The notes under the pieces were generated by a model. That model was given only the letters and a program-made list of their open reading frames with translations. It had not been told where the DNA came from and did not search any database. A program made the position numbers and the translations under genes. Of a DNA stretch of 64,000 nt, positions 505 to 62,648 are shown piece after piece. The stretch is from Bedellia somnulentella. Its lineage: Eukaryota > Arthropoda > Insecta > Lepidoptera > Bedelliidae. The stretch's first letter is position 1; every line of letters starts with the position of its first letter. The stretch covers positions 12,925,608-12,989,607 of the forward strand of contig OY755191.1 of NCBI GenBank assembly GCA_963576735.1. Reading direction: 5' to 3'.

Positions 505-2208
505 TTACCCAGCTAGTGTTGTTGACCTGTTTTTTCTAAATCCGTGCTGTGGGTCACAAAATATATTATATTTTTCATAGAACGAGTAAAGTCGCGCTGC
601 CATCGCACTCTCAAAAATCTTAGATGATGTAGTTAGTTGGGCAATGGGGCGATAGTTATTAGGGTCTGTTTTGATGCCCTTTTTATATATAGGTTTAACT
701 AGTGCTGTTTTAAGTGCTTCTGGAAAAACACCTTCGATAAAAGATTGGTTAATTAGATTAGTATAAGGAACAGTAAGTTCGGCTGCGCATTTTTTTATTA
801 ACGAGGGAGGAAGTTCATCTATTCCTGAGCTACATTTGTTTTTAAGATTTTTAATAATGTTATGGACTTCTTTTGGTTCAACTAGATGTAAGAAAAAAGT
901 ATTTTGTATTATATTTACAGGTTTAATTTTTTGTTTAGCTTGCAAAGAGAGCGGTTTTGAATTTCCTACCGAAGTGAAGAAATCATTAAAAGTATTAGCC
1001 ATTATTTTTGGGCAGTCCACTAAAGTATTATCAATTTTAAGTTGAATATTGTTTTTAATTCGAGAAGGCATCTTGTTAGTTTCATTGTGTATTATTTGCC
1101 ACATGGTTCGGGTTTTATTTTCCTGTGTATTGAATTTACGTATGTTGTAGAGTTTTTTCGATTTCTTTGCTAGTCTTTTTAGGATTTTTGAATAGGTTTT
1201 GTGGTGTTCCTTTAAGACAGTACTTTTTGTTTGAGAAGCTAGTATTCTAAGTAATCTTTTATTACGGCATGATATTTTTATTCCTTTAGTTAGATAGGGT
1301 TTTTTTGATTTGGTATAAACTTTTAGCTGTGTTCGTGGTATACATAGATCAATAATTTTCCGTAGAGATTCAATGAATGAATTAAAATTGTCATTTACAG
1401 ATTTATTAGATGTTAGTTTATCGTCCCAATTTATACTTATGAGTTCGTTTTTAAATTTAATTATATTTTTTTCTGAGAAAATTCTACGATTTGTGTAAAA
1501 GTATGGTATGCGTGACTGCTCTATTGGCATCGCGAATGTAACTCCTTTGTGATCTGAAAACCCAAATTCTGTTACATTGATAAAACAGTCTTTGTCATTA
1601 AAATTTACAAACAATAAATCTAGGCATGTAGAGCTAGATGCTGTTACTCTAGTTGGGTGTTTTACTTTTTGGATGAAGTTATATGTTAACATAAGGTTAG
1701 ATAGTCTTTGTTTCAGATTGTTGTGTTTACTCTTTGGCATAAAATCAACGTTAAAATCCCCCCCTATAATTATGTTTTTGTTATTTTCTTTTGTGTGAAT
1801 GATACTTAAAAGTTTTTCTAGTTTATCAAAGAATACATCAATTTCTCTACTACAGTCTGGCCAATATAAGCAGATTAGTAATATATTTAACTTATTTAAC
1901 TCTACTGCGCATATCTCAAAAATATACTCGAAAGACAAGTTATTCAAATCGACTCTATCTTTACTTTCACAGTCATTAGATAAAATAATGCATGTACCTT
2001 CACAGTCAAACCTTTCGCGGCAGAAAGAAGCTCGTACTGTGTAATTGTTTATGGAAAGTAATTCAATTTTTTCCTTTTTCATCCATGTTTCTGTAATACA
2101 AATAGCTTGAATTTTGGGGTTTTCTTCCAGGTAAGCTTCAAGTAAGTGTGTTTTGTTGTTAAGGCTCTGCATATTTTGGTAGAGAATTTCAAATCGATTG
2201 GCCTGCAC
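505..2208 (-). pseudogene. LINE ORF2, APE endonuclease plus N-terminal half of reverse transcriptase (truncated)
   Basis: 567 codons from the ATG at 2206-2208. The first ~235 residues form an apurinic-type endonuclease: QNMQSL near the start, catalytic-type TETW, GGDFNVDF, STCLDLLF and the closing SDHKG. A linker follows, then the RT fingers with SSGIDELPPSLIKK, TALVKPIYKKG, NYRPIAQLTTSSKIFE and HGFRKNRSTT. The frame ends immediately after this motif, so the catalytic palm Asp pair is absent and the protein could not reverse-transcribe. The APE would nick the target DNA and the RT would copy the RNA in an intact element. No stops or frameshifts occur before the break. Confidence 0.85.
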
Positions 2209-3460
2209 GAAATGTAGGGTTCTGGTCTCTTCTATTATTTTGTTTTGTGCCGTTGTGTATATCAGTTTCGTGGGTACTGCTGTTGTTTATGTTTCTCAGG
2301 TCCCGGCCTCCTCCGTTATTTTGTATTTTATTTACATGGTTGTTTTCATGGTATATTTCGTCACTGACTGTGATTGGTTTGCCTTTTATGTACAGTATAT
2401 TGTTCCTTATTACTGCATGCAATCCCTTTTCCCTGGCTTTTAGCATTTTTTCTCTTAATATTTTGCGGTCTTTTCTTGCTTTTTCTCCTAAGTGTTCGGC
2501 AACTGATAGTAGGGTTCCTTCTAGGTAGTGTTTATTTTCTAATATGTATTTTACCATTTTTTTGCTTATGAGTTCGACTACTACGGGTCGGTTTCTGCTG
2601 TGATATTTACCTAGTCTGTAGGTATCTTCAATGGAGCCATACAGATCTATATTCAATGTGTCTCGGAATGTTTCTATAAGACGTATTTCAAACTCGTATT
2701 CGGTTTCTTGGTAATACTCCTGTAGTCCATATATTACAATTTTTTTGCTATCGCTTTCATATGGTTGTTCTGTTTGTGAGGTAGAGAACTTGTTGAGTAG
2801 TTCTTTTATTTCTTTTTTAAGAGATATATTTTCTTGTTCCAGCGTTAAAATTTTACTATTTATTTGTTCTAATTCTGTCTGCCTTTCAATATTCTGTGAG
2901 TTCAAGTAGTTAATATCGTTTGTAATATCATCCTTTAGTTTGGAGATAGCCTTATTTATTTCTATTTGGATTGTACTCTGTAATTCAGATATTATAGATG
3001 AATTATTTTCCCTTAGTTTCTTTGTTATAATTTTGCTTAAGTTTTCTACCGTTAATTCCGTGTTTTCTGCCGTAAGTTTCGTGTTTGTTTCAGTTTGGGT
3101 GGAATTATCCATTTCAATGGTGTCGCCTAAGATACTAAAGCTATCTGAAAACCTGGTGGAATCTGGGTTTTTTCGATCAGTTAGTTTTTTTCTGGTAGTG
3201 ATATTGTTTCCTTCAGGTATTGATTTTATTAGATCGTTATATTTAGGGTTAATGGGTTTATCGGTGTTTCCCATTTTCGGAGTCTTACTAAGACAACCTG
3301 GACATTTCCATGTTTTCCTGTGTTCACCAGTCATAGTATTGAGATATCTTTGGATTGACACATTTGCGCATTCGATATCGTAGGTGTTGCTGCACAGACT
3401 ACATGTGAGAAACTGACGATTAGGGATATTTTGTTGACATCCCGCACACTTCAGATCCAT
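2189..3460 (-). CDS. LINE ORF1 protein: PHD-like zinc finger, coiled coil, L1-ORF1-like RNA-binding domain
   Basis: 423 codons, opening MDLKCAGCQQ. Cysteines at residues 5, 8, 20, 23, 31, 53 and 56 match the PHD pattern, with Asp28 where the usual His would be. Residues about 165-232 are rich in E, K, L, I and N in heptad-like spacing, consistent with a coiled coil. From about residue 240 (KKIVIYGLQE) to 370 there is an L1-ORF1/FP-like RNA-binding fold with the conserved stretch RNRPVVVELI. In this family ORF1 binds the element RNA and forms the RNP with ORF2. The stop overlaps the ORF2 start by 20 bases, which suggests coupled translation. The frame is fully open, pointing to a fairly young copy. 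Confidence 0.8.
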   Translation of the reverse strand: MDLKCAGCQQNIPNRQFLTCSLCSNTYDIECANVSIQRYLNTMTGEHRKTWKCPGCLSKTPKMGNTDKPINPKYNDLIKSIPEGNNITTRKKLTDRKNPDSTRFSDSFSILGDTIEMDNSTQTETNTKLTAENTELTVENLSKIITKKLRENNSSIISELQSTIQIEINKAISKLKDDITNDINYLNSQNIERQTELEQINSKILTLEQENISLKKEIKELLNKFSTSQTEQPYESDSKKIVIYGLQEYYQETEYEFEIRLIETFRDTLNIDLYGSIEDTYRLGKYHSRNRPVVVELISKKMVKYILENKHYLEGTLLSVAEHLGEKARKDRKILREKMLKAREKGLHAVIRNNILYIKGKPITVSDEIYHENNHVNKIQNNGGGRDLRNINNSSTHETDIHNGTKQNNRRDQNPTFRAGQSI

Positions 3461-3470
3461 GTTTTTATGC

Positions 3471-3788
3471 TTTTATAATAAAAGTTCTATTTATCATAAG
3501 TAAGTAAGAAAGTAGAGCTGTTTAGATTCCTGTTTAATATCTTCAGTATTATATATATATATCAATTTAGTGCCCTCTAGTAGTGAGTAGTGGAATTAAC
3601 TTAATCTTGTATTGAGTATTTAACAATTTAGTATAGTAGTTCTGAGTTTATTTGCTAGATGTCACTAGGTTGTATTATTTATAATAATTTGAATTGTTGG
3701 ATTCGTTGGGTCCAAGGGTCATTTATATTGTTCACTGGTTCTTGTAAAGTTATTGATGTTTGTAGGCAGAATTTATCACTTTGAGTCT
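3471..3788. other. AT-rich region upstream of the LINE
   Basis: Probable 5' UTR or flank of the minus-strand LINE. It contains a short (TA)n run near 3549-3561. No other coding or repeat signal was recognised. Confidence 0.4.
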
Positions 3789-36297: not shown

Positions 36298-37397
36298 CTC
36301 TGTGTAAAAAGTATCGGGAATATGTCAATAAAAAGACCCGCGTAAAAGAGGTCGTTCAAATTTTTTTAGTGCATGTTGGTAACACTGTACTGATTTAGCG
36401 CGCAAAATTTGAGCGGGATCTGTCATTTAATTTGTTTTAAACTACATTTTTTGTTGGTCATAGTTTTGAGAAGCAGTAGTAGAGTTGCCTCGTTCTGGTA
36501 GACCTTCAACCGCTACGACCAAAGAAAACATCGACAGAATCAAGAAGCTAGTGCTCGAAAATCGACGTATGAGTCTGAGAGAGTTGGTTTGTGAGGTGAA
36601 CATATCTTTTAAGTCCGTCCACAACATTCTCATTGACATTTTAGGCATGAAACGCGTCGCCGCTCGATTAGTTCCAAAAGAGCTCAATTTTGTTCAAAAA
36701 GCGCAGCGAAAGCATGTCGCTGAAGACATGGTTTCCCGAGCTTCTACGGATCCGACCTTTATGAAACCTATAATAACTGGCGACGAGACATGGGTTTATG
36801 AGTACGACATGCAAACAAGCCAACAGTCTTCAGAATGGCGTCTCAAAAACGAGCCAAAACCCAAAAAACCGCGGCAAAGTCGCTCCAAAATCAAGGTGAT
36901 GCTGACAGTTTTTTTTTACTACCGTGGTGAGGTTCACTCCGAATTCCTTCCAGAGGGAGAAACAGTGAATAAAGCATATTATTTAGGCGTCATGAAGCGT
37001 TAGCGTGAGAGAAGCCGCCGATAACGTCCAGATTTGTGGCAACACAACTCATGGATGCTGCACCATGATAATGCACCATCACACACAGCCATTATAGTGA
37101 GTTCTCAAAAGTTCTCGATCAAGCACCGTATTCACCTGATATGGCTCTGTCTGACTTTTTTTTATTTCCCAAGTTAAAAGTTTTGAGTCGATAAAAGCCA
37201 TAAAAGAAAATTCGCTGAATGAGCTTAAGGCCATACCGCTAATAGCCTATGAAAAATGTATGGAAGACTGGGTGCAGCGGTGGAGATGTTGTATTGCAAG
37301 CGATGGGGCCTACTTTGAAGGCGATAAAATAAATTTAGATGAATAATTTGTATTTTTTGTTTTATTGACAAATTCCCGATACTTAGTACACAGAATG
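36298..37397 (+). mobile_element. mariner-like element with terminal inverted repeats
   Basis: The left end carries AAGTATCGGGAATATGTCAA, matched by the reverse complement of the right end, AAGTATCGGGAATTTGTCAA. The elements abut TA dinucleotides. A broken transposase fills the interior. The length of about 1.1 kb is slightly below a full mariner, in line with the missing N terminus. Confidence 0.9.
36485..37349 (+). pseudogene. mariner transposase pseudogene
   Basis: The open part (36485-37003) begins PRSGRPSTATTKENIDRI, after the lost N-terminal helix-turn-helix. It includes ITGDETWVYEYD (first catalytic Asp) and SEFLPEGETVNKAYYLGVMK. In-frame stops follow at 37001-37003 and in the next line. 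HHDNAPSHT near 37070 holds the second Asp, and after a frameshift YSPDMALSDFFLFPK holds the third. The end reads AYEKCMEDWVQRW, then SDGAYFEGDKINLDE-stop near 37349. The order and spacing fit the DD34D mariner pattern. At least two stops and two frameshifts make it inactive. No nested insertion disturbs it. Confidence 0.9.
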
Positions 37398-44090: not shown

Positions 44091-44442
44091 ACTGCAAATA
44101 TAATACACTCTACTAGCTAGTCAATAAATAATTTCCTCTCAAAAGCAACTCGGATTTCCTTTGTCAAATACGTTTACAAAATAAAGTCAAGAATAGGCTA
44201 GTTGACTAAATTTCAATAACTGCTTAATAATTTAGCTTATTAGGCATTTTATCGAAAAAAAATGTTTATTTATTTTTAATCGAGCGTTTTCATTATAAAT
44301 TTAGCGTTTTAAAAAACTAATTTCAATTTGGTTCCAAAACGCACAAGACTGTCATGGCGTCTTGAATGACGTCACGCCGTGCGAAACAAACCAAAGAGCG
44401 ATCGTGTCTTCGTACGTGATAGCTAGTTTTTATCGTTTAAAA

Positions 44443-45562
44443 ATGAATTTCTCATATTATAAGTACTGTATGGTGCCCCATTGTGATAGCACGACTTTAA
44501 AAACGCCAATCAAGTTATTTATATATGTTCCAAACAATGGAGAAATACGGAAAAAGTGGTTAAAACTTGCAAGAAGAGATGATGCTCATACTTTATCAAC
44601 AGGTTCAAGAATGTATTTTTGTGAAGATCATTTTGATGTATGTATTTCACACAATACAATCTATTACTTTATTCGAGCAAACTAGATGTGTTTTGTAGAA
44701 TCCATACATACATACATACATATACTCACGGCTATATTTCCCTAGAAGGGGTAACCAGAGCTAAGGAATTATAAATTCCTCAGCCACTTTTGGAAGTTGA
44801 GTGGGGAAAAGATGGTAAAAATAAAGGTTTTTGGTGATGGGTGTCCAACCGCATTGCCTAAAAATCCAATATAGCCCCAATACCCTTAGTCGCCTCTTAC
44901 GACACACGTGGGTAGAAAGGGGTAGCGACATTCTAAGCCGGCACTACACGGCAAATTGTAGAATCCCTATTTTCTAAATAATAAATACATGAGTTCAGGT
45001 TAAGTTGTTTCACTTTTAGAAGTGAACGTTTTATTTTAGTTTTCTAATTAATGTTACAAACATACTCATTTTATTATTCTAGTTGCCAAATGATATGATA
45101 AATGACATGGAGTACCATATGAAGGGAACAGTATCACAAGTGCGTATGAAACCAGGTTGTATGCCTAGTAAATTTGGATGTCAAGAAGACAGAAGAAAAC
45201 GAACATGCAGCAGTACAGAACGGCTATATATTCTAAAAAAACAAAGAAAGATGATAATAGAATAGAAGAGTGTCTGAATGAATCGAAAGAAAGTTGTACT
45301 CCAAGTGTTGTATCAATTTTCTTGCAAAATGTACGTCAAAACATTAAATCCTTGTGTACCGAACTGAAATGTCACATAGCATTTATGCTTATAATAAATA
45401 TTTTATACTTACAAGGAAGTTTTAACATTTTGAAATTCAGATGAGCAAAAGTCACTGTTCGACGCGAAAAAATTTCCAAGCATAACGGCATCGATTCTGG
45501 CCAAATTATTACTGTCTGCTTTGCTGAATCCCGATTCCATGGTTAATTCTTTCAAATTATAA
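44443..45562 (+). pseudogene. THAP zinc-finger gene with intron, frameshifted
   Basis: Exon 1 (44443-44637) starts MNFSYYKYCMVPHCD and continues through KKWLKLARRD to FCEDHFD, giving the C-x4-C...C-x2-H zinc ligands of a THAP domain. A phase-0 donor GTATGT (44638) and acceptor TTATTATTCTAG (to 45082) bound an intron that holds a family A copy. Exon 2 resumes LPNDMINDMEYHMKG, then SQVRMKPGCMPSKFGCQ and KKQRKMIIE before a stop at 45263. The likely continuation EECLNESKES lies in another frame, so a frameshift is present. A third exon-like block (45441-45562) reads EQKSLFDAKKFPSITASILA to a stop. THAP domains bind DNA, often at transposon ends. Confidence 0.75.
44701..44955 (-). repeat. Family A retroposon inside the THAP intron
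   Basis: Full reverse copy of the CTATATTTCCCTAGAAGG variant, the same subfamily as 17875, ending CCGGCACTACACGGCA. Confidence 0.95.
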
Positions 45563-55074: not shown

Positions 55075-55262
55075 AGGATAGAGAAATTTCGCGCTGGATG
55101 CCAACTGACACTGTAGCTCAGTTGGCAGAGCGACGGGGGCGTATACCCGAAGGTCGCGGGTTCGAACCCCGCCAGTGTCGAAATTTTTCTTTCCTTTAAT
55201 AACATCTTTTATTTATGAGTAATAATCCCCACATGAGGTATTCATGTCAAAAAACATTAAAT
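55075..55262 (+). repeat. tRNA-like SINE (family D), near-tRNA head
   Basis: GACACTG pairs perfectly with CAGTGTC over 7 bases. GCTCAGTTGGCAGAGC gives a D arm and GCGGGTTCGAACCCCGC a T arm. The anticodon arm (CGGG, 8-base loop, CCCG) is one base too long and has only four clean pairs. It is therefore a SINE head rather than a working tRNA. The tail block AGTAATAATCCCCACATGAG follows. Confidence 0.7.
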
Positions 55263-59211: not shown

Positions 59212-59346
59212 TCAAACGCAAGCATTAGATATCTGTATTCTGCCATCCACTTCACTAAAAACAGGGGATTGCTTCTTGATGTAATCTTGTAGAACTGCGT
59301 AGTCCACGCCGACCACTTCCACATTACGTCTGTTGGCTGGAATCAT
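59212..59346 (-). CDS. 5'-nucleotidase/apyrase-like gene, terminal exon
   Basis: After the acceptor TTCTTTCCTTCCCAG the exon starts MIPANRRNVEVVGVDYAVLQ. It continues DYIKKQSPVFSEVDGRIQIS and ends NACV with TGA at 59212-59214. In 5'-nucleotidases the GGDGF motif is followed by Met-Ile and a domain closing on (V/D)GRI, which matches this exon joined to alpha or beta. The join is phase 0. The protein ends soon after GRI with no hydrophobic tail, so a GPI anchor is unlikely and a secreted form is possible. The enzyme hydrolyses nucleotide phosphates outside the cell or in saliva in known relatives. Confidence 0.8.
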   Translation of the reverse strand: MIPANRRNVEVVGVDYAVLQDYIKKQSPVFSEVDGRIQISNACV

Positions 59347-59375
59347 CTGGGAAGGAAAGAAGATTGCGATTAATA

Positions 59376-59543
59376 CATACATACATACATATACTCACGG
59401 CTATAAATCCCTTAACGGGGTAGCCAGAGCTTTGGAATGAGAAATTCCTTAGCTACTTTTGGAAGTTGATTGGGGAAAAGGTGGTAATAATAAATGTTTT
59501 TGGTGACGGGTCTCCAACCACATCGCCCAAAAACCACTTTATG
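59376..59543 (-). repeat. Family A, 5'-truncated, with target-site duplication
   Basis: In the 5'-nucleotidase intron. Flanked by GCGATTAATA (59366-59375 and 59544-59553). It stops in the middle of the family at CCCAAAAACCACTTTAT. Confidence 0.95.
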
Positions 59544-59744
59544 GCGATTAATAAGCCAAATTAAATAAGTAAAGGTTATAGTTGTTCCTAACCTACTCTC
59601 AACATTCAATATTCGTTAACAAGTGTAAGGTTCAAATTATATTTTGGTTAGCAAATGTTAATAAAAATCTGAAGTCTTATACAAGAGAGATGTTTTTACG
59701 AGAAAAAATATGTAGGTATTTAATTTTTAACGAAATTTGGTAAT

Positions 59745-59855
59745 TTAAATGGATTGATGTAAACGAAGCTAGAGAGGTTTGCCAGGATCGTACAAAATGG
59801 CGATCGATAGTCTCTGCCTACTCCAATGGGAAATAATGGCGGGAGTAAATGTATG
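59745..59855 (+). repeat. Family C LINE 3' end
   Basis: GATGTAAACGAAGCTAGAGA, then ATCGTACAAAATGGCGATCG to TGGCGGGAGTAAATGTATGC. Encodes the AREVCQDRTKWRSIVSAY block. Confidence 0.8.
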
Positions 59856-59879
59856 CATTTGGTTATTTAATTGTATTTA

Positions 59880-60017
59880 ATCACCGACAACCTTTATCTC
59901 ACCATCTTTTCCCCACTCAACTTTCCAAAAGTGGCTGAAGGATTTCTAATTCCTTGGCTCTATCTACCCCTTCTAGGGATTTATAGCCGTGAGTATATGT
60001 ATGTATATGTGTGTTAA
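59880..60017 (+). repeat. Family A, 5'-truncated
   Basis: Starts at ATCACCGACAACCTTTATC and runs to GCCGTGAGTATATGTATG. Confidence 0.85.
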
Positions 60018-60634
60018 TGAGATAAAGATATTTAAAATGATGAAATGGATAGCCCAAAAGCCTGCTACCACTGCAGAAAATGTATGCATATTTAATATAT
60101 TTCGTGAATTTTCGTGATAGATGATCGGCTCAGCGTATCGTGAAATTCAGTTGAGCATGTAAATAATTACGGTTCGGAGTATTGGATTTATTTTCCCGGT
60201 GAATTAATTACTCGACCCTTTTTGGTATTAGTCTTTTAATAATTAATAATTAATTGAGTCGTCCGATGGATTAAAGTATAATGTTTCTAATTTGTTTTCT
60301 GATTTTCAGTATTTTCAAAAAGTTCTTTAGTAACAGCCCTCATAAGTCCCCAGTGTCCCCAAAGAAAGGCTTAACCTAAATAGTATAAATACTGGATAAA
60401 GTATTAAATAGGGTAATTGGCTATAAATTACGGTCTGGTGTAATACGCCCTCATACATTTAATTACTAGGTCAGTCAGGACCAATTTTTAACATGCCCTC
60501 TGAGGAATGCTTTTAAAGAAATCTTACTACAGTGTTTAAGATTTTTTAAATGACAAGAACCCAACACGCACATGACCGTGTCCGTAAAGCTATAAATCTT
60601 CCCTCGTTATTCCCAGGAATAATTGTCTGGTGAG
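60018..60634. other. AT-rich intron sequence, nothing assigned
   Basis: No coding or repeat signal was recognised. Confidence 0.4.
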
Positions 60635-60965
60635 GATTTTTCTTCTCACGTTATGTAATTGTTTTTTTGTGATGGACAATTTATTTTAATTATGTCAAAC
60701 TAGCGTTTGGTTTCGTCGCATAGAAAATCCTTTATAAAGTAAACATATGTTACGCCCAAAATTGTACAAACCATATGTTGAAAAAATGTGAATGTAAAGA
60801 ATTTCTTTGTTGCTTCTTCTCTTTACGAACACCTTCAACAGCTACGAATAAAAAATTTAAAAAATTTGACGTTAAAAAAATGATAGTTTGTAACTTAATT
60901 TTGAAAAATAAAATTTTTGTAATTTTTTTTGAGGCAAGGAAACATCTTATTTTTCGACAGGCCGG
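60635..60965 (+). repeat. Dispersed ~330-bp repeat (family G, copy 2)
   Basis: Matches 30205-30540: CTTCTCACGTTATGTAATTG, GTCAAACTAGCGTTTGGTTT and TGTACAAACCATATGTTGAA. Confidence 0.75.
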
Positions 60966-61023
60966 ATATTTTTATAGAACTTACAATGTCCGAACTAACT
61001 GGGATAAACTATACATACATAAC

Positions 61024-61215
61024 AACAAATACTCACGACTATAAAACCCACAAAGTGGAAGCCAGAGATTCAGTATTAGAAACTCTTCAGTGACTTTTAG
61101 CTGGCGAAACGATCGTAAAATAATTATCTGCATCGCTCACCAATAACTTCAAAAGCCTAATGCCTCTCACTACACTCGTAGAAAGAAATAGGTATATGCT
61201 ACTCTTAGCTGTATC
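61024..61215 (-). repeat. Family A, degenerate
   Basis: AATACTCACGACTATAAAAC to a worn head near CTACTCTTAGCTGTATCAAC. Confidence 0.65.
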
Positions 61216-61254
61216 AACACAGCACACAAGAGTTGAATCTACCCTGATATTAAC

Positions 61255-61492
61255 TACTCAAACATTCACGCCGCATATCCCAGAAGGTGTTGGCATTGAA
61301 ACTAATACATGAACTAAGTACAACTGAGCCATGTGGGTTTCCTCATGGTGTTTTGCCTTTCCGTTAACAACCATGATAAATTAACCGCTCATATGTCTTT
61401 AGAAAAAACATATTGGTGTAGGGCCAACCCAGGATTTGAACCCTCATCGTCGCCCGATAAGCAATGTTCTACCCACTGAGCTTTCACGGTTG
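61255..61492 (-). repeat. Family B SINE with internal deletion
   Basis: CTCAAACATTCACGCCGCAT, a jump to TGAACTAAGTACAACTGAGC, and the head CCACTGAGCTTTCACGG. Confidence 0.8.
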
Positions 61493-61880
61493 TCGTACTT
61501 GTTATTACTGCTATATACATGCACTGTTATTATGCGTTGTGTGAACTTTTTTTGGCATTGTAACAGAGCCGAATCTAAATTTTTGTAAAAAGGGTAATGT
61601 TTTGTTATAATGCTGTTTGTGTACGTATCAATTATATAAATTAAACTAAATTATATGTACCGTACCGTATGAAATACGAGTACAATACCGAAGTATGAAT
61701 TTCGTAGATACAAGTTACCGCATTATGAAAGCTTCAGTATAGGGTTGTCGATGTATAAATTTTCGGAGAAAGGGTTTCCGGAATCACGTATGAAATATAA
61801 CCTATCCTATTTCTAGCTAATGCATGTGTGAGTAATAGGATAAATTGTGCACCCCTTTTTTTGTTACCGTTATTAGGAAT
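61493..61880. other. AT-rich intron sequence, nothing assigned
   Basis: No coding or repeat signal was recognised. Confidence 0.4.
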
Positions 61881-62144
61881 ATACATACATACATACATAC
61901 ATACATATACTCACGGCTATAAATCCCTAGAAGGGGTAGCCAGAGCTAAGGAATTAGAAATTCCTCAGCCACTTTTGGAAGTTGCGTGGGGAAAAGATGG
62001 TAAAATAAAGGTTGTTGGTGATGGGTATCCAACCGCATCGCCCAAAAATCCCTTAATAGCCCCAATACCGTTAGTCGCCTCTTACGTACACCCACCGGCA
62101 GAAATGGGGTAGTGTTATTCTAAGCCGACACTACACAGCAATAT
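61881..62144 (-). repeat. Family A retroposon
   Basis: Full reverse copy with a long (TACA)n tail; close to the consensus and probably young. Confidence 0.95.
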
Positions 62145-62278
62145 ATTTTTTATTTTTATATTATTTTTAAGAGTAATCCATCCATCACCATCACCACCAG
62201 TGTCTGAAAGTTTTGATTTTAGAAACTAGATATATTCTCCTAGCTGTGATTTTTATACAAATAAGTTACATTACTTAC

Positions 62279-62445
62279 ACTGAAACCACCTCCGCCACCG
62301 GCAAGAAAATCTGTTGATACCACTTTGTACCATTTGTTTGCCATTAGTGGCACATATTTAGGCACATCACATTCAATACACCTCACTGTCACATTCAGGA
62401 CTCTGGTTCCATAGGGTTGTGCACCATCGTAAGTTGGTTTAATGC
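62279..62445 (-). CDS. 5'-nucleotidase-like gene, alternative exon beta
   Basis: 167 nt after acceptor ATTTTACAG, donor GTAAGT. It encodes (G)IKPTYDGAQPYG, then VLNVTVRCIECDVPKYVPL, WYKVVSTDFLAGGGGGFS. This is the C-terminal nucleotide-binding domain of 5'-nucleotidases. The paired Cys (CIEC) and the adenine-stacking-type Phe of DFLA are kept. The Asp of GGDGF is Gly here. In CD73 that Asp contacts the ribose, so substrate binding may differ. Phase 1 entry and phase 0 exit equal those of exon alpha. No stop or frameshift. Confidence 0.8.
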
Positions 62446-62481
62446 CTGTAAAATGATTCGAAGTGTATGCGTGAAACTTAC
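62446..62481 (-). other. 36-nt spacer between exons alpha and beta
   Basis: Runs from donor GTAAGT of alpha to acceptor TTTTACAG of beta, only 36 nt in all. This is shorter than working animal introns usually are, so alpha-to-beta splicing is unlikely. Confidence 0.8.
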
Positions 62482-62648
62482 AGCGAAACCATCCCCGCCT
62501 TCGCCTAAGAAGGTTTGCGATACAATTTTGTAATATTGGTTGAGGTCTAAAGGCTCGTAGCGAGGAATATCGCATTGCAGGCAGCGAACTGTGACGTTGA
62601 CAACCCTATTGCCTATTGGTCGCGACCCGTCGTATTTTGGTCGGATTC
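62482..62648 (-). CDS. 5'-nucleotidase-like gene, alternative exon alpha
   Basis: 167 nt after acceptor TTTCTTCCAG, donor GTAAGT. It encodes (G)IRPKYDGSRPIG, then VVNVTVRCLQCDIPRYEPL, YYKIVSQTFLGEGGDGFA. It has the complete GGDGF motif, the CxxC pair and the TFLG Phe of the nucleotide-binding domain. About 32 of 55 residues equal exon beta. Joined to the terminal exon it gives GGDGFA-MIPAN, the order seen in CD73-type enzymes. Upstream exons with the metal-binding N-terminal domain lie outside the window. Confidence 0.85.

What the first reader, a model, noticed from the sequence alone, without database searches (positions are those of the whole stretch)
59212..62648. Two tandem, strictly mutually exclusive exons in a 5'-nucleotidase gene that switch a substrate-contact residue
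Exons alpha and beta are both exactly 167 nt, enter in phase 1 and leave in phase 0, and share about 32 of 55 residues. Using both would shift the frame. The spacer between them is only 36 nt, too short for normal splicing, so two independent constraints force one-or-other use. Alpha keeps the GGDGF Asp (equivalent to CD73 Asp506, which contacts ribose); beta has Gly. The same gene could therefore make two enzymes with different nucleotide binding.
Basis: partly seen in the sequence, partly recalled or inferred. Interest (0 to 1): 0.88.

Follow-up and report, generated by a model that had tools for sequence, protein, structure and literature searches.

The report
Swappable exon in moth nucleotide enzyme
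A moth or butterfly gene for a nucleotide-cutting enzyme carries two alternative versions of one exon that do not fit together in one message, and they differ at an amino acid that in the human enzyme grips the sugar of the substrate; some relatives show the same arrangement, so one gene probably makes two enzymes that handle nucleotides differently.

Summary
On the minus strand lie an Asp-type exon (62648-62482), a 36-nt spacer, a Gly-type exon (62445-62279) and one terminal exon (59346-59212). Both alternatives are 167 nt, enter in phase 1, leave in phase 0 and share 33 of 56 residues. Using both, keeping the spacer or skipping both breaks the frame. The Asp exon is the upstream one. Closest relatives are lepidopteran CD73-like "apyrases". 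Four other species show both exon types: Iphiclides (two records identical except for 12 residues inside this exon, one being Asp/Gly), Arctia, Spodoptera frugiperda and Epargyreus. The Asp aligns without gap to CD73 Asp506, which hydrogen-bonds both ribose hydroxyls. So a conserved kind of mutually exclusive exon pair is well supported as gene structure; its use in RNA and any change of substrate are inferred, and whether the window's own pair is orthologous to the others is unresolved. Such exon pairs are a known kind, and a fly nucleotidase (CG42249) with mutually exclusive exons that change catalytic residues is in print, so this is a new member, not a new kind.

The parts
62482..62648 (-). 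Asp-type alternative exon (upstream, 167 nt, phase 1 in, phase 0 out), encodes ...TFLGEGGDGFA
   Evidence: structure and Pfam PF02872 matches with the terminal exon; tblastn
62491..62493 (-). Codon for the Asp equivalent to CD73 Asp506
   Evidence: ungapped alignments to CD73 chains; ribose contact
62446..62481 (-). 36-nt spacer GTAAGT...TTTTACAG: donor of the Asp exon and acceptor of the Gly exon; every A in it is at most 34 nt from the donor
62279..62445 (-). Gly-type alternative exon (downstream, 167 nt, same phases), encodes ...DFLAGGGGGFS
62288..62290 (-). Codon for Gly at the Asp506 position
59347..62278 (-). Intron of 2932 nt between the alternative exons and the terminal exon, holding copies of a dispersed repeat
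59212..59346 (-). Terminal coding exon with stop codon (MIPANRRNVEVVG...ISNACV*), in frame with either alternative
62488..62489 (-). GT inside the Asp exon (GATG|GTTTCG), phase 1, 44 nt from the Gly exon: could fuse a shortened Asp exon to the Gly exon in frame
   Evidence: the S. frugiperda model P0014 joins after the same residues (GGDG)

Best explanation
[quoted passage not shown] If the upstream Asp exon is chosen, its donor lies too close to any branch point in the spacer for the two exons to be joined, and a joined or spacer-retaining form shifts the frame and stops early (116 nt before the last junction in the joined form). If the Gly exon is chosen, the Asp exon is removed as part of the intron. 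Shown: exon anatomy, phases, frame outcomes, homology, and both exon types in records of single genes or loci of relatives. Inferred: the branch-point block, decay of faulty forms, and use in this species. Inferred with less certainty: the Gly isoform keeps the base clamp (Phe417, Phe500), Asn390 and Arg395 but lacks the acidic ribose contact, so it binds nucleotides differently (affinity, ribose versus deoxyribose, or mono- versus di/triphosphates) rather than being dead.
For: Anatomy and frames. With the terminal exon, the two versions match solved 5'-nucleotidases at best E 1.3e-17 and 1.1e-18 (cobra venom enzyme; human CD73 at best 4.4e-17 and 3.4e-14) and PF02872 at 37.5 and 32.7 bits, cut-off 23.6. 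Iphiclides P0002/P0021: 528 of 540 identical, all 12 differences inside this exon, Asp versus Gly, contigs of the same listed length. Arctia P0017 holds the Asp exon followed by part of a Gly-type exon (GGGEF); P0081 has the Asp exon alone, and 477 of its 479 residues agree with P0017. S. frugiperda P0014 and Epargyreus P0001 hold a shortened Asp-type exon followed by a Gly-type exon, as models forced to use both would. Seven records named isoform X2 or X3 carry a non-Asp exon: Ostrinia, Helicoverpa, Anticarsia, S. frugiperda, T. ni, Choristoneura (Gly) and Plodia (Ala). With the last residues left out, the 14 non-Asp exons need 4 changes on the tree, against 9-14 in 500 shuffles over 58 labelled rows. 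Contact positions in 44 chosen relatives: N390 N in 44, R395 R in 43, F417 F in 43, F500 F in 37 and Y in 7. AlphaFold model of the Iphiclides Gly isoform: mean pLDDT 91.7, best PDB matches human CD73.
Against: No RNA evidence for this species; the search of its assembly did not complete. The homologue database is clustered at 90%, so partner isoforms are mostly hidden, and an 'isoform' name does not prove this switch: the Pectinophora pair (P0012/P0013) and the Papilio xuthus pair (P0053/P0066) differ elsewhere and carry Asp in both. Arctia P0081 and P0017 are on contigs of different listed length, perhaps two assemblies, and P0081 also lacks 39 residues upstream. The window's Asp exon is not closer to the Asp exons of Iphiclides, Epargyreus and S. 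frugiperda (34, 28, 31 of 52) than to their Gly exons (36, 32, 33); its Gly exon is only slightly closer to theirs (33, 31, 30) than to their Asp exons (32, 27, 28). So its pair may be an independent duplication. One clade of non-Asp exons is not rejected (AU p 0.324) but appears in 0% of 200 bootstrap trees. Plutella P0009 pairs with the window's Gly exon in one tree yet has Asp. The CD73 phosphate contact R354 is R in only 4 of 44, so CD73 is an imperfect guide to function.
Confidence: 0.8

Rival explanations
1. The two exons belong to two tandem genes, or one is a remnant of a partial gene duplication.
For: Tandem copies of this gene occur in Lepidoptera: models P0014 and P0016 run two copies together, and Epargyreus P0001/P0019 lie on contigs of the same listed length with 78% identity.
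Against: Only 36 nt separate the exons, and no second terminal or other exon was found in the 64 kb. Both exons keep phase, splice sites and open frame. Iphiclides records share everything but this exon.
Confidence: 0.04
2. A third form is also made: a shortened Asp exon joined in frame to the Gly exon, giving a protein with the segment repeated.
For: Models P0001 (591 aa) and P0014 contain such joins, and the window has an in-exon phase-1 GT 44 nt from the Gly exon.
Against: GTTTCG is a poor match to the usual donor, the intron would be 44 nt, and some 50 residues would be inserted within the folded C-terminal domain. The two models cut at different points, as gene finders forced to keep a frame would. 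These are judgements; no test was run.
Confidence: 0.06
3. The Gly exon is a decaying copy, seldom used and without function.
For: It lacks a conserved contact residue; its acceptor has few pyrimidines and any branch point in the spacer is crowded; its own end branch is long (0.59 against a median of 0.11).
Against: No stop in frame and an intact GTAAGT donor; differences between the exons fall 18, 16 and 34 at codon positions 1, 2 and 3. Gly-type exons appear in annotated proteins of several families. A separate paralogue group lacks the Asp altogether (0 of 7 rows).
Confidence: 0.06
4. The pair is real, but the switch matters for stability, secretion or partner binding rather than for substrate (this overlaps with the best explanation, whose functional half it would replace).
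For: 23 of 56 residues differ between the exons, not only position 506.
Against: Non-Asp at 506 recurs in exons of many species while neighbours vary; but exons were sorted into types by that residue, so this is partly circular.
Confidence: 0.25

Closest known systems
Homologous mutually exclusive exons (criteria in PMC3228551; human survey PMC5740500)
   Same: Similar length, same phases and splice sites, homologous sequence; [quoted passage not shown]
   Different: Gene and lineage; here both blocks coincide at one 36-nt spacer
Drosophila CG42249, a probable nucleotidase with mutually exclusive exons that change catalytic residues (PMC7954323, section 13 read)
   Same: Same enzyme family by their PDB reference 1USH; exon choice changes active-site residues
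   Different: PMC3228551 (passage) says its exons are used in groups rather than singly and that it is probably trans-spliced; which residues change is in a figure that I could not see
Human CD73 / NT5E
   Same: Fold, ungapped alignment of this segment, N390, R395, F417, F500, and D506 in the Asp form
   Different: No tandem exon pair known to me (recall, not searched); the splice variant NT5E-2 (search listing only; loss of exon 7 is recalled) drops a segment instead of swapping it; R354 is mostly replaced in the insect proteins
Second lepidopteran apyrase group (e.g. P0086, P0089)
   Same: Same family; Gly or Ser at the 506 position in the 7 rows examined
   Different: About 50% identical to the gene discussed, Tyr at the F500 position; not examined for an exon pair

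Membership tests
Homologous mutually exclusive exon pair | Similar length | tested here: met
   167 and 167 nt
Homologous mutually exclusive exon pair | Conserved splice sites and reading frame | tested here: met
   AG/GT sites, phase 1 in and phase 0 out, open frames
Homologous mutually exclusive exon pair | Sequence homology | tested here: met
   33 of 56 residues identical
Homologous mutually exclusive exon pair | Combined inclusion blocked or non-functional | tested here: met
   Frame shift and stop when both are used or the spacer is kept; a block of splicing itself is inferred from 36 nt, and an in-frame cryptic join remains possible
Homologous mutually exclusive exon pair | Splice-junction reads for each exon and none joining them | not testable with these tools
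   No RNA data held; records of relatives only
5'-nucleotidase/apyrase family (CD73-like) | C-terminal nucleotide-binding domain PF02872 | tested here: met
   37.5 and 32.7 bits, cut-off 23.6, over profile positions 105-156 of 158
5'-nucleotidase/apyrase family (CD73-like) | N-terminal metallophosphatase domain with metal ligands | not testable with these tools
   Upstream exons lie outside the window and the own assembly could not be searched; PF00149 is listed for relatives

The most novel reading that the evidence does not exclude
An old, selectively kept specificity switch: through one exon choice a lepidopteran extracellular nucleotidase gene makes an Asp form that favours ribonucleotides and a Gly form relaxed at the 2'/3' hydroxyls, which also takes deoxynucleotides or di/triphosphates, perhaps divided between gut, saliva and other tissues.
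Probability: 0.2. Interest if true: 0.72.

Novelty: new member of a known kind. Interest (0 to 1): 0.5.

Why it matters
It gives a natural within-gene swap at a well-studied substrate contact of the CD73 family, with like records in several moth and butterfly families, so the role of that residue can be tested with two native isoforms. Caterpillar saliva contains apyrase and lowers ATP in tomato leaves (PMC3405022; start of the abstract and one passage seen), so isoform choice could bear on feeding. Three annotated models (P0001, P0014, P0017) appear to fuse such exon pairs, so the arrangement may be under-recorded.

Tried and rejected
Tandem genes: rejected on 36-nt spacing, one terminal exon and the Iphiclides records. 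Chance: rejected. Dating the duplication from exon trees: tried; 50-56 columns are too few, and neither one origin nor several is shown. Identities by type support separate Asp and Gly lineages among Epargyreus, Iphiclides and S. frugiperda in most but not all comparisons (one Iphiclides-S. frugiperda cross value, 36 of 52, equals the Asp-Asp value), and not for the window's exons. dN/dS between the two exons: dN 0.38, dS saturated, so no ratio. Finding the 5' exons: none in the window. Naming the species: not achieved; among the rows of the tree the nearest to the Asp exon is 71% identical. Literature: the listings of searches (open-access library only) showed no title on a swap in lepidopteran apyrase; I opened PMC7954323, PMC3405022, PMC8677862, PMC3228551 and PMC5740500 only, by passages or one section.

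Full report
Observation. On the minus strand the window holds the last part of a gene: exon 62648-62482, a 36-nt spacer, exon 62445-62279, a 2932-nt intron and a terminal coding exon 59346-59212. The alternative exons are both 167 nt, enter in phase 1 and leave in phase 0, have AG acceptors and GTAAGT donors, and encode peptides that agree in 33 of 56 positions. The Asp (GGDGF) is in the upstream exon and the Gly (GGGGF) in the downstream one.

Frame logic. Using both exons gives a stop in the second exon, 116 nt before its junction with the last exon; keeping the 36-nt spacer leaves the same frame and the same stop; skipping both also breaks the frame. Every A of the spacer is at most 34 nt from the first donor. 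[quoted passage not shown] this case has both features. That a 36-nt intron cannot be spliced in this insect is inference. An in-exon GT at 62489 and one in the spacer would give in-frame joins, so exclusion is not absolute on paper.

Identity. With the terminal exon, both versions match CD73 and other 5'-nucleotidases over 94-97 of 100 residues in the closest hits and PF02872 above its cut-off. The 13 full-length relatives of the first search are all lepidopteran, and those with a descriptive name are called apyrase (some are unnamed); later searches add flies, beetles and others. In a gapless alignment the Asp falls six residues after the Phe that is F500 in CD73, that is at D506 (residue numbers are from PMC8677862, and I fitted them to the chain by spacing). 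PMC8677862 (passages) states that Asp506 hydrogen-bonds both ribose hydroxyls, with Asn390 also at the ribose; Phe417 and Phe500 stack the base; Arg354 and Arg395 hold the phosphate. In 44 relatives that I chose from 127, N390 is N in 44, R395 is R in 43, F417 is F in 43, and R354 is R in only 4.

Relatives with both exon types. Iphiclides P0002 and P0021 are identical in 528 of 540 residues and all 12 differences lie in this exon. Arctia P0017 holds the Asp exon followed by part of a Gly-type exon; P0081 has the Asp exon alone, agrees with P0017 in 477 of 479 residues, lacks a further 39-residue stretch, and is on a contig of different listed length. S. frugiperda P0014 and Epargyreus P0001 run a shortened Asp-type exon into a Gly-type exon; in P0001 the cut falls before residue 506, so the Asp itself is not seen there. 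Order upstream-Asp-type, downstream-Gly-type is thus seen in Arctia, S. frugiperda, Epargyreus and the window; for Iphiclides it is unknown. Models P0078, P0080 and P0099 read through the Asp exon's end as V-S, what GTAAGT would give, which places that end at the same spot. Seven records named isoform X2 or X3 have a non-Asp exon, but their partners are hidden by 90% clustering, and the named isoform pairs of Pectinophora and Papilio xuthus differ elsewhere, with Asp in both.

Evolution. I hand-picked 63 of the 127 proteins for exon trees; 69 distinct exon rows, the two window exons included, entered (weak, partial and duplicate rows dropped in the script; four outgroup rows dropped) entered, with residues 51-56 removed. 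Labels went to 58 rows: 14 non-Asp and 44 Asp, one of the latter (Epargyreus P0001, first exon) by position only. The non-Asp rows need 4 changes against 9-14 in 500 shuffles; related sequences cluster anyway, so this shows only that the type is not scattered. One clade for them is not rejected (p 0.324) and is found in none of 200 bootstrap trees. The window's own exons do not pair clearly by type with those of others. A second, separate paralogue group has no Asp at this site in 7 of 7 rows examined, though P0051's second domain has GGDGY. In a fly, P0079 has GGGGF, GGDGF and GGYGY in its three domains. So loss of the Asp seems tolerated repeatedly in this family, which speaks for altered rather than lost function; this is inference.

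Structure. An AlphaFold model of the Iphiclides Gly isoform has mean pLDDT 91.7, and its best PDB matches are human CD73 (37-38% identity). This shows that the Gly form is compatible with the fold, not that it is active.

Verdict. A real mutually exclusive exon pair as far as genome and annotation can show, with like arrangements in four other species; use in RNA and effect on substrate remain to be tested. Prior work makes it a new member of a known kind: PMC7954323 (section 13 read) reports a fly nucleotidase, CG42249, with mutually exclusive exons that change catalytic residues, and PMC3228551 (passage) says that gene uses exon groups. The listings of my searches did not show the lepidopteran case.

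Noticed in passing
46 places in the window, e.g. 59396-59412, 61912-61928, 59975-59991: A dispersed repeat with core CACGGCTATAAATCCCT (up to 3 mismatches) occurs 46 times on both strands within 64 kb (0.15 expected by shuffling); several copies sit in the intron before the terminal exon. Its nature is unknown; a short interspersed or miniature element is a guess.
   Followed up: partly
505-3472, minus: Two overlapping open frames; the one at 505-2286 carries an endonuclease-reverse transcriptase domain (PF14529 above its cut-off; PF00078 below it), so probably a non-LTR retrotransposon; the other matched no Pfam family.
   Followed up: partly
36470-37003, plus: Open frame with a partial transposase domain (PF01359); mariner-like by recall.
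   Followed up: partly
44305-44685, plus: Open frame with a THAP DNA-binding domain.
   Followed up: no
55106-55181, plus: tRNA-like fold with an odd four-base anticodon, perhaps a tRNA-derived short element.
   Followed up: no
Proteins P0001, P0014, P0017: Annotated lepidopteran apyrases in which gene models seem to fuse the two alternative exons.
   Followed up: partly
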